NCBI RefSeq assembly: GCF_002742265.1 | Contig: NZ_MDGL01000161.1 | Span: 1-64,000 of the forward strand | Reading direction: 5' to 3' | DNA from: Maribacter sp. 4G9 | GTDB lineage: Bacteria; Bacteroidota; Bacteroidia; Flavobacteriales; Flavobacteriaceae | Length of the DNA: 64,000 nucleotides | In this document: positions 61,062 through 63,768 of the stretch, piece after piece | Position numbering within the stretch: the stretch's first letter is position 1 | Layout: each line of letters starts with the position of its first letter | Notes under the pieces: model-generated | Told to the model about the DNA's origin: nothing | Databases searched by the model: none | The model's input: the letters and a program-made list of their open reading frames with translations, nothing else | Made by a program: the position numbers and the translations under genes

Positions 61062-61754
61062 TTAAACATTGCTTAGGGCTTCGGCCAATTCCGTTTTCTT
61101 GTTTCTACTTAAAGGAATCGAACGGCCGCTCACTTCAACATTTTTACTGTTGAATTTTTCAACTTTTTCCAAGTTCACGATATAGGATTTGTGAATTCTC
61201 AGGAATTTATCTTCTGGCAATTGCTTTTCAAAAGATTTCATTGTTGATAAAATTACAATGTTGGCTTCATCGGTTACCAATTTGATGTAATCTCCCAGAG
61301 CCTCGATCCATTTAATATCGTTTAGGATGACCTTTCTTTTCTTCAGGTTGCTTTTAACGAAGATATGTTCCTCGTCTTCGTTCACCCTGTGCATTTGCTC
61401 GTATTTGGCAACCGCTCTTTTTACGGAAGCATCAAAACGCGCCATGGTAATGGGTTTGTGCAAATAGTCCGTTACATCGTAATCGAAAGCCTTTAGGGCA
61501 TAATCCGGTTTACCGGTAATCAAAATTACTTGGGGACTGTTGTCCAAGGATTCAAGTAGGTCGAATCCGGTGATAATAGGCATTTCAACATCTAAAAAGA
61601 TCAAATCGATTTCATTGTTCTTAATGCCGTTTTTGGCTTCGATGGCGTTGCTGTACTCTGCCACCATAGCTAGGTTTGGGTGGTTGTTTACCAACTTGGC
61701 GACCGCCATACGCTGCATGGACGAATCGTCAACGATAATACTTCTTAACTTCAT
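61062..61754 (-). CDS. LytTR-family response regulator
   Basis: A 230-residue two-domain regulator: receiver domain (about 1-120) with acidic pair DD 9-10, phospho-acceptor Asp55 in FLDVEMP, Thr80 and Lys100, then a LytTR DNA-binding domain (about 130-230; IKWIEALGDYIKLVTDE, FLRIHKSYIVNL). The expected partner is a LytS-type histidine kinase, which is not in the window. Targets are unknown. Confidence 0.9.
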   Translation of the reverse strand: MKLRSIIVDDSSMQRMAVAKLVNNHPNLAMVAEYSNAIEAKNGIKNNEIDLIFLDVEMPIITGFDLLESLDNSPQVILITGKPDYALKAFDYDVTDYLHKPITMARFDASVKRAVAKYEQMHRVNEDEEHIFVKSNLKKRKVILNDIKWIEALGDYIKLVTDEANIVILSTMKSFEKQLPEDKFLRIHKSYIVNLEKVEKFNSKNVEVSGRSIPLSRNKKTELAEALSNV

Positions 61755-61958
61755 AAGGGCTGATTTGTGGGGTTAAATCATCGACAAATTACCGAAAAAA
61801 CACGGTCAACTGCAACAAAAGATGTAAACAATGCTTTTCTTATTGTATAGATGGCAATGATCATAAGTTATTAAGATTTGGTTTATACTTTTAAAAAATT
61901 TCTTCCTAGCTATAACGAAGAATTTCTTCATTTCTTATAATTATTGAAAAAAAGTATC

Positions 61959-61966
61959 TATTTTTG
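61959..61966 (+). promoter_or_regulatory. TAnnTTTG box upstream of rpsF
   Basis: TATTTTTG (61959-61966) matches the Bacteroidota -7 element; no clear TTG was seen at the usual distance. Transcription would begin near 61973, leaving a leader of about 17 bases, too short for a structured ribosomal-protein leader. Confidence 0.6.
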
Positions 61967-61989
61967 CACTCCTTTTAAATAAATATAAT

Positions 61990-62331
61990 ATGAACCATTA
62001 CGAAACTGTTTTCATTTTAAATCCCGTTCTATCTGATGTACAGATAGAGGAAACAGTTAAGAAATTCGAGGATTTCTTAATTAACAATGGCGCCAAAATG
62101 GTCGCCAAGGAGAATTGGGGCCTAAAAAAATTGGCCTATCCGATCCAAAATAAAAAAAGTGGTTTTTACCACTTGTTCGAATTTACTAGCACCGGTGAGG
62201 TCGTTATGCCTTACGAGCAGGAGTTTAGGAGAGATGAACGCGTCATGCGCTTTTTGACCGTAAAATTGGACAAACATGCCGTCGCGTGGGCAGAAAAGAG
62301 AAGAACAAGAAACAAAACTGCTAAAGCTTAA
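61990..62331 (+). CDS. rpsF: Ribosomal protein bS6
   Basis: A 113-residue protein of the small subunit, starting [16 protein letters not shown] and containing [37 protein letters not shown], all typical of bS6. bS6 pairs with bS18 on the 30S platform. It lies 5 bases before rpsR, the usual bacterial order rpsF-rpsR-rplI. Confidence 0.97.
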
Positions 62332-62336
62332 GTACT

Positions 62337-63098
62337 ATGTCAACATTACAACAACAGGCAAAAGGAAAAAAAGATGGGGAGATAAGATATCTTACCCCGT
62401 TAAACATAGAGACCAACTCAAAAAAGAAATATTGTAGGTTCAAGAAATCCGGTATCAAATATATTGATTACAAGGATGCCGACTTTCTAATGAAATTGGT
62501 GAACGAGCAAGGTAAGTTATTACCCAGAAGACTTACAGGTACTTCCTTGAAGTATCAACGAAAAGTAGCTCAGGCGGTGAAGAGAGCTCGTCATTTGGCG
62601 CTAATGCCATATGTTGGTGATTTATTAAAAGAAAAGAAAAGAATCATGGAGCTTATATTAAAGGAAGACGTAGAAAATTTAGGTTTTAAAGATGACTTGG
62701 TAAGCGTTAAGAACGGATACGGTAGAAACTACCTTATTCCTCAGGGCTTGGCGACCATGGCAACTCCTTCGGCTAAAAAAGTTTTGGCCGAAACCTTAAA
62801 GCAGAGAGCCCACAAAGAAAAGAAAGTTGTGGATGCTGCTAAGAAAACTGCTGAGGCACTAAAGGCCTTGGACTTGAAAATTGCTGCAAAGGCCGGGGCC
62901 GGCGACAAATTGTTCGGTTCAGTAACCAATGCTGATTTGGCGGATGCAATTGAAAAGGAAGGACATACTATCGATAAGAAGTTCATTAGCATTCAAGGTG
63001 GTTCCGTTAAAAGAACCGGACCCTACAATGCCCAGATTAGACTTCACAGAGAGGTCGTTGTTGATTTCCCTTTTGAGGTTGTCGCGGAGCAGAACTAA
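62337..63098 (+). CDS. rpsR-rplI: Ribosomal proteins bS18 and bL9 in one continuous frame
   Basis: A 253-codon open frame. Residues 1-98 are bS18 ([20 protein letters not shown] ... [15 protein letters not shown]), whose flavobacterial homologues end at this Lys. Codon 99 is GAA (62631-62633) where a stop is expected, followed by a linker EKKRI and then, in frame, Met104, the start of bL9 ([26 protein letters not shown] at about 129-137; whole bL9 150 residues). No stop lies between them. bS18 belongs to the 30S platform and bL9 to the 50S near the L1 stalk, so a fused product would be remarkable. Both parts otherwise look intact. A single-base sequence error is the main alternative. Confidence 0.85.
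62646..63098 (+). CDS. rplI: Ribosomal protein bL9 (possible independent start inside the fused frame)
   Basis: The ATG at 62646 begins a complete 150-residue bL9: N-terminal rRNA-binding domain ([26 protein letters not shown]), the long connecting helix ([17 protein letters not shown]...) and the C-terminal domain ending [10 protein letters not shown]. The stretch before the ATG (AAAAGAAAAGAAAAGAATC) is A-rich, as before many flavobacterial starts, so separate initiation could supply free bL9 even if the upstream frame has lost its stop. Which form is made cannot be told from sequence. Confidence 0.7.
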
Positions 63099-63117
63099 TA
63101 CGATTATAAATTTGGAC

Positions 63118-63153
63118 ATAAGCCTTTCAGGAAACTGAAGGGCTTATTTGTTT
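63118..63153 (+). terminator. Terminator of the rpsF operon
   Basis: ATAAGCCTTTCAG (63118-63130) pairs with CTGAAGGGCTTAT (63135-63147) around a GAAA tetraloop, with one G-T wobble, and is followed by TTGTTT. It starts 20 bases after the rplI stop. Confidence 0.85.
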
Positions 63154-63172
63154 CATACTTTTAATTACAAGA

Positions 63173-63649
63173 ATGAAATATACCAGACTTACAAAGGAAC
63201 AACTGGAAGAGCTTCATCCTGAATTCATTAACTTTTTGGCAACGCAGTCAATCGATAAGACAGAATGGGATGATATAAAGCAAAACAGGCCCGAAGTAGC
63301 AGAAGAGGAATTGGACATATTCAGCGATTTGGTATGGGAAGGCGTACTGACAAAAATTGCCTTCTTGGAGAATATTTCAGATCAAGAAATGAACCTGTTT
63401 CACTTGACCGATAAGGAAATGAAACTGATTGCGGTTAAAGTTTTGAATCCAGAAATAGATTTGACTACCAAGATGGGTTTTGATTGGTTCAGAAAGAATT
63501 GGCAATCTGATTTCGTGGACTATATGACAGCATCCAAGGCATACACGGACGACCCTAACCAAGATAAATTTGAATTGATTAAGCAAGGGGCCGTAATAAC
63601 CAAAGGAGAATTATATCAGTGGTTTGATAAAGTTATCGTAGCCCCCTGA
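63173..63649 (+). CDS. DUF6495 family protein
   Basis: A 158-residue acidic, probably soluble protein starting MKYTRLTKEQLEELHPEFI, matching DUF6495, a family usually found just downstream of rplI in Flavobacteriia. No signal peptide, membrane segment or catalytic motif is seen. Function unknown. Its last two residues (Ala-Pro) and stop lie within the C-rich start of the following repeat element. Confidence 0.72.
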   Translation: MKYTRLTKEQLEELHPEFINFLATQSIDKTEWDDIKQNRPEVAEEELDIFSDLVWEGVLTKIAFLENISDQEMNLFHLTDKEMKLIAVKVLNPEIDLTTKMGFDWFRKNWQSDFVDYMTASKAYTDDPNQDKFELIKQGAVITKGELYQWFDKVIVAP

Positions 63650-63740
63650 CCCCCAAAGGGATCCCCCTCTAGCTAACCCAAGTGGGGAGAATTGGTTTCT
63701 CAGATTGTATTTCCACTTCTTTGGAAGGGATTAAGGGGAG
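63642..63740. repeat. REP-like imperfect inverted repeat between DUF6495 gene and hisS
   Basis: The region begins CCCCCTGACCCCCAAAGGG (about 63642-63660) and ends CTTTGGAAGGGATTAAGGGGA (about 63719-63739), an imperfect inverted pair, with an inner C-run/G-run pair (ATCCCCC and GTGGGGAG). Such CCCC...GGGG elements recur between genes in Bacteroidota genomes. Its left edge supplies the stop codon of the preceding gene and its right edge supplies the TTTG of the hisS promoter. Only one copy is in the window. Confidence 0.6.
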
Positions 63741-63751
63741 ACTTATATTTG
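63720..63751 (+). promoter_or_regulatory. Bacteroidota-type promoter of hisS
   Basis: TTTG (63720-63723) and TATATTTG (63744-63751) are separated by 20 bases, a full match to the consensus. Transcription would start near 63758, about 10 bases before the hisS ATG. The upstream element lies inside the REP-like repeat. Confidence 0.82.
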
Positions 63752-63768
63752 CAACACATAGAATATCC

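What the first reader, a model, noticed from the sequence alone, without database searches (positions are those of the whole stretch)
62337..63098. bS18 and bL9 joined in one reading frame by loss of a stop codon
bS18 normally ends at Lys98 in this group; here codon 99 is GAA (62631-62633), one base from TAA, and the frame continues through EKKRI into a complete bL9. I know of no natural fusion of a 30S to a 50S protein. bS18 sits on the 30S platform and, with bS21 and bS6, forms the pocket that sequesters the anti-Shine-Dalgarno tail in Flavobacterium ribosomes, while bL9 binds 23S rRNA near the L1 stalk; a five-residue tether would constrain subunit movement or require cleavage or independent bL9 initiation at 62646. 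If real, this could affect ribosome assembly and the loose start-site selection typical of the phylum. A single-base sequence error at 62631 is the main alternative.
Basis: partly seen in the sequence, partly recalled or inferred. Interest (0 to 1): 0.9.

Follow-up and report, generated by a model that had tools for sequence, protein, structure and literature searches.

The report
Ribosomal gene stop codon lost once
Two neighbouring ribosomal protein genes read as one long gene in this single Maribacter assembly because one letter of a stop codon differs; the relatives examined keep the stop, so this is either a one-letter sequence error or a private mutation, not an established fusion protein.

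Summary
In detail: 62337-63098 is one open frame of 253 codons holding a complete bS18 (98 aa), a five-residue link EKKRI and a complete bL9 (150 aa). It differs from a normal rpsR-rplI pair by one base, G for T at 62631 (GAA for TAA); bS6, bS18 and bL9 are identical in protein sequence to the nearest relative. The link is the translated 12-base leader of bL9. TAA stands in all 29 other Maribacter loci read at DNA level; the remaining 4 genus genomes with a match show stops at the bS18 end. No second fusion was listed in family, class or phylum samples or found in 116 fetched loci. The genome has no second bS18 or bL9. The assembly otherwise looks clean: of 283 gene comparisons over about 350 kb, this is the only stop lost by one base change, which does not exclude rare substitution errors. 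Without reads or a second assembly, error and real private mutation cannot be separated. I favour error (0.55) over real mutation (0.4). An evolved, selected fusion finds no support.

The parts
61990..62331 (+). rpsF, bS6 (113 aa), first gene of the rpsF-rpsR-rplI cluster
   Evidence: ORF; 100% identical in protein to G030; the name bS6 is recalled from sequence and position, no family search was run on it
62337..62630 (+). rpsR, bS18, codons 1-98
   Evidence: 98-residue chain 7jil_w aligns 1-98; identical protein in G030
62631..62633 (+). GAA in place of the bS18 stop TAA; single T-to-G difference at 62631
   Evidence: TAA in 29 of 29 other Maribacter loci read at DNA level
62631..62645 (+). 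five-codon link EKKRI; its last 12 bases are the bL9 leader AAGAAAAGAATC
   Evidence: 18 of the 20 in-register Maribacter loci have the identical 12 bases
62646..63098 (+). rplI, bL9 (150 aa) with its own ATG and stop TAA
   Evidence: identical protein in G030

Best explanation
This is an ordinary rpsF-rpsR-rplI cluster of a Maribacter genome in which one base of the assembled sequence (62631) reads G where the organism most likely has T. In that case bS18 ends at a UAA after Lys98, and a ribosome finishing bS18 can restart 12 bases downstream, or a fresh one can start, on the A-rich leader and AUG of bL9; two free proteins are made. Shown: the one-base difference, its absence from the relatives examined, the intact bL9 leader and start. 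Inferred: that the base is a consensus error, and that bL9 is made by restart or independent initiation.
For: TAA in 29 of 29 other Maribacter loci read, and stops at the bS18 end in the other 4 of 33 genus genomes with a match. Every listed row that spans both proteins outside the window carries at least one in-frame stop: 140 others in the family sample (counted by eye, list cut by the tool), 136 in the class sample, 23 in the phylum sample; the samples share genomes. 0 of 116 fetched loci fused. The rpsR coding part has no difference from G030, silent ones included, and between 62104 and 62701 the stop base is the only one. The only copies of both genes are affected, which I take to make a real change costly. 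bS18 C-termini are described as directed towards rRNA (PMC11711686, passages seen).
Against: The assembly looks clean: 279 of 283 G030 genes compared end alike, and the three other exceptions are two genes with unalignable 3' ends and one gene decayed in G030; no frameshift or nonsense change of this genome was flagged by that test. The site is well inside its contig (62631 of 77669). From general knowledge, substitution errors in a consensus are rare. Against G030, T-to-G differences (1751) and A-to-C (1882) only slightly exceed their reverses (1659 and 1767), within a general shift towards G and C.
Confidence: 0.55

Rival explanations
1. Real private mutation. The strain carries GAA; ribosomes run through and make a 253-residue bS18-bL9 chain, while some bL9 may still be started at the intact AUG at 62646. 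bL9 is not essential in other bacteria, so the cell survives with fused bS18, part of it perhaps trimmed.
For: Clean assembly around it; bL9 start and leader untouched; bL9 called nonessential (PMC10931766, passages) and rplI deletable with a growth cost in Pseudomonas fluorescens (PMC13245932, passages); a natural chain with bL9 at the end of another protein is modelled in NCBIfam (NF011110); T-to-G turns AAAATAAAAGAAAAG into three copies of AAAAG, a change that copying errors in short repeats could favour (inference).
Against: No other case listed or found, so the change seems strongly disfavoured over evolutionary time; sole copy of bS18.
Confidence: 0.4
2. Evolved tether. The fusion is fixed and selected: it forces one-to-one output of bS18 and bL9 or couples the two subunits.
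For: Frame open and both domains complete.
Against: One genome only; the nearest relative held lacks it; the link is just the untouched bL9 leader with no adapted linker; no report found (listings).
Confidence: 0.03
3. Programmed stop-codon readthrough is the normal state in the group and this genome fixed it.
For: In 20 of 33 Maribacter genomes the two genes are in one register with a single stop between; in the family sample at least 141 of 348 genomes with a match (the window included) give a spanning row (list cut), somewhat above one in three.
Against: The other 13 Maribacter genomes have the genes out of register (coordinates); of the 9 of these read, 8 carry a doubled TAA TAA stop. Among genomes of the same order but other families, 7 of 21 with a match are in register and 14 are not (worked out by hand from the coordinates), which is what chance gives.
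Confidence: 0.02

Closest known systems
Ordinary rpsF-rpsR-rplI cluster of Bacteroidota (bS6, bS18, bL9)
   Same: Gene order, spacing, leader and all three protein sequences as in the nearest relative; the related E. coli operon rpsF-priB-rpsR-rplI is described in PMC10931766 (passages)
   Different: One base: GAA instead of TAA at the end of bS18
NF011110 / PRK14538, putative bifunctional signalling protein / 50S ribosomal protein L9 (NCBIfam)
   Same: bL9 matches the C-terminal end of a longer natural chain, so an N-terminal extension of bL9 has a precedent
   Different: Partner is named a signalling protein, not a 30S protein; the window protein scores 58.1 bits against a cut-off of 707 and is not a member
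Ribo-T, engineered ribosome with tethered subunits (PMC7170887, search listing and abstract start only)
   Same: Idea of covalently joined subunits
   Different: Engineered and, from recall, joined through rRNA, not by a protein; no sign that this sequence does the same
Ubiquitin-ribosomal protein fusions of eukaryotes (PMC10457151, search listing and abstract start)
   Same: Ribosomal protein made as part of a fusion
   Different: Eukaryotic and, from recall, cleaved by proteases with no counterpart expected here

Membership tests
bS18 (TIGR00165, PF01084) | Match to family models above cut-off over the domain | tested here: met
bL9 (TIGR00158, PF01281, PF03948) | Match to both domains above cut-off, own start codon | tested here: met
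Evolved gene fusion | Shared by more than one lineage | tested here: not met
Evolved gene fusion | Base supported by raw reads or a second assembly of the species | not testable with these tools
   No reads held; records of the window's own genome or very near ones may be left out of the collection scan (note)
Evolved gene fusion | Fused protein seen in the cell | not testable with these tools
   No proteomics held
Programmed stop readthrough | In-register spacing conserved beyond chance | tested here: not met
   7 of 21 matched genomes of other families in the order; 20 of 33 in the genus, one group; at least 141 of 348 in the family sample, list cut
NF011110 bifunctional signalling protein / L9 | Score above the curated cut-off of 707 bits | tested here: not met
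   58.1 bits

The most novel reading that the evidence does not exclude
The G is real and this bacterium lives with its only bS18 made as a bS18-bL9 chain, a natural covalent link between a 30S and a 50S protein, with bL9 either delivered as the fused tail or supplemented by internal starts at 62646.
Probability: 0.35. Interest if true: 0.75.

Novelty: not a real feature. Interest (0 to 1): 0.3.

Why it matters
If the base is real, a living cell tolerates its sole bS18 fused to bL9, which would test how freely the subunits must separate and whether internal starts can rescue a lost stop. If it is an error, it is a warning that a single base can create a spurious two-subunit fusion in annotation. 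A single PCR read decides.

Tried and rejected
Second copies of bS18 or bL9 that would relieve the pressure: none found. Other fusions elsewhere: none listed, none in the 116 loci. The exact junction in viral contigs: none. An RNA element near the operon: in 61700-63300 only one match, at 16.8 bits against a gathering score of 86, E 0.48. Junction mRNA: folds no better than shuffles (z -0.12); the lowest-energy form puts the bL9 AUG in a weak hairpin. Direct evidence of an error-rich assembly: not found. That check covered 281 of 315 ORFs of at least 80 codons in three contigs of this genome (34 had no counterpart of 70% identity in the G030 stretches held), counts as alike any ends differing by up to 8 residues, did not judge start sites, and is blind to a few substitution errors per 100 kb. 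Structure prediction of the fused chain was not run: it cannot say whether the ribosome accepts the link. The distance from bS18 Lys98 to bL9 Met1 in 7jil, which holds both chains, was not measured because no coordinates are held. In print: searches (listings and abstract starts; one search found no paper) showed no report of a bS18-bL9 or other 30S-50S fusion; most listed papers were not opened, and the library lacks most subscription journals. Searches were for background.

Full report
What is there. The window holds rpsF (61990-62331), rpsR and rplI in the usual order. rpsR starts at 62337; its 98th codon is followed by GAA at 62631-62633, then AAG AAA AGA ATC and the ATG of rplI at 62646; the frame closes with TAA at 63096-63098. 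Family models for bS18 and for both bL9 domains match above cut-off over nearly their whole length, and the solved Flavobacterium johnsoniae bS18 (7jil_w) has 98 residues aligning 1-98.

Where it comes from. The genome is 4.6 Mb in 196 contigs, rated 99.98% complete, and the window is part of contig C160 of 77,669 bases. Two same-genus genomes have contigs of the same length, with the match at the same place, as named records of Maribacter (G014:C19 and Maribacter sp. PR1, 422,458 bases; G006:C2 and M. antarcticus DSM 21422, 767,842 bases), so the genus is Maribacter; the species is not known to me.

One base. The nearest relative held, G030, differs from the 762-base stretch at 13 positions. 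The rpsR coding part has none; between 62104 and 62701 the only difference is 62631, G here and T there. Proteins of bS6, bS18 and bL9 are identical. The EKKRI link is thus the changed stop codon plus the translated leader of bL9: those 12 bases, AAGAAAAGAATC, are identical in 18 of the 20 in-register Maribacter loci.

Relatives. Of 35 other genus genomes, 33 have a match. DNA at the junction was read for 29 of these 33 and all 29 have TAA after the last bS18 codon (the 7 other loci put to that script are of other genera and did not fit its pattern; 6 of them can be read and also have TAA). The remaining four genus genomes show stops in the bS18 match. In 20 of the 33 the genes match as one stretch with a single TAA inside; in 13 they match as two stretches and are out of register. 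In the family sample (397 genomes, 348 with a match at the threshold) 140 listed rows other than the window span both proteins and each has at least one in-frame stop (counted by eye, and lower-scoring rows were not printed). In the class sample (395 genomes, 138 matches) 136 other spanning rows all have stops, one row being bL9 only. In the phylum sample (395 genomes, 27 matches) 23 other spanning rows all have stops, three being bL9 only. These samples share genomes, and their thresholds favour in-register pairs. Of 116 fetched loci none is fused (80 of these were picked as the best full-length matches).

Is in-register spacing itself selected? Among the 21 matched genomes of the same order but other families, 7 are in register and 14 are not (from the coordinates), as expected by chance. 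I see no sign of a programmed readthrough.

Copies. Searches of the window's genome with the whole protein and with the S18 and L9_N models find only this place. If the base is real, no normal bS18 gene is available.

Is the assembly trustworthy? I compared about 350 kb of this genome (the window, C7 and C20) with G030. Of 283 G030 genes with a counterpart of at least 70% identity, 279 end alike; in the other direction 279 of 281 (34 of 315 own ORFs had no such counterpart). The exceptions are this stop, two genes whose 3' ends do not align, one of them holding a C-rich repeat here, and one gene decayed in G030. No frameshift or nonsense change of this genome was flagged. Differences from G030 lean slightly towards G and C of all kinds: A-to-C and T-to-G together 3633 against 3426 the other way, A-to-G and T-to-C together 9321 against 9039 (sums). 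The first lean is a little larger in proportion, which could hide a small excess of such errors, but the two do not differ clearly. These checks exclude a poor assembly but not a rare substitution error: nonsense changes are a small share of substitutions, so an error rate of one in 100,000 would pass unseen.

How it would work. In the error reading, bS18 ends at UAA and bL9 is started 12 bases on. In the real reading, ribosomes pass the former stop; the bL9 leader and AUG are unchanged, the local mRNA is no more structured than shuffles though the AUG can sit in a weak hairpin, and free bL9 may still be made beside the fusion. bL9 is described as nonessential (PMC10931766, passages), and an rplI deletion lives with reduced growth in Pseudomonas fluorescens (PMC13245932, passages), so loss of free bL9 alone need not kill. 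bS18 is the part that matters: with bS21 and bS6 it forms the pocket that holds the 16S 3' tail (PMC9976891, passages), and its C-terminus is described as directed to rRNA (PMC11711686, passages). [quoted passage not shown] Whether five residues can bridge the two sites was not measured.

Weighing. A real change and an error both need a rare event. For error: the change is private, hits a codon kept by all relatives examined, in a gene otherwise identical to its nearest relative, and would burden the sole bS18 gene. For a real change: the surroundings are clean and a fresh mutation in one strain needs no history. A possible route is copying of the neighbouring repeat, as the change makes three units of AAAAG. 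These weights are judgement, not computed: error 0.55, real private mutation 0.4, evolved tether 0.03, fixed readthrough 0.02. I label the finding not a real feature because that is the likelier reading; a read check could overturn this.

Known precedents. NCBIfam has a model of a natural chain with bL9 at the end of a signalling protein (NF011110); the window protein is not a member. No 30S-50S fusion was seen in print (searches; listings only, apart from the passages named above).

Noticed in passing
63634-63765: C-rich stretch (CCCCCTGACCCCC...) downstream of rplI that does not align with G030; a related motif sits at the changed 3' end of a gene at C7:121931 of the same genome. The motif occurs 2 times in 349,708 bases here and 0 times in 391,001 bases of G030: perhaps a small mobile repeat that alters gene ends.
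   Followed up: partly
L022 (G010:C1:1993542-1994301): bL9 of this relative is split by a frame change near its end (query 1-229 and 225-253); the assembly is rated 81% complete, so perhaps a sequence error there.
   Followed up: no
L028, L029, L115, L117-L121 (genus Maribacter): Eight Maribacter loci have a doubled stop (TAA TAA) and a gap of 13 or 14 bases after the first stop, which puts bS18 and bL9 out of register.
   Followed up: partly
L155:7042-7780 (G030:C1 from 1317042): Gene with the look of a membrane protein, intact in the window's genome (C7:208513-209250) but decayed in G030 by a deletion and frame changes.
   Followed up: no
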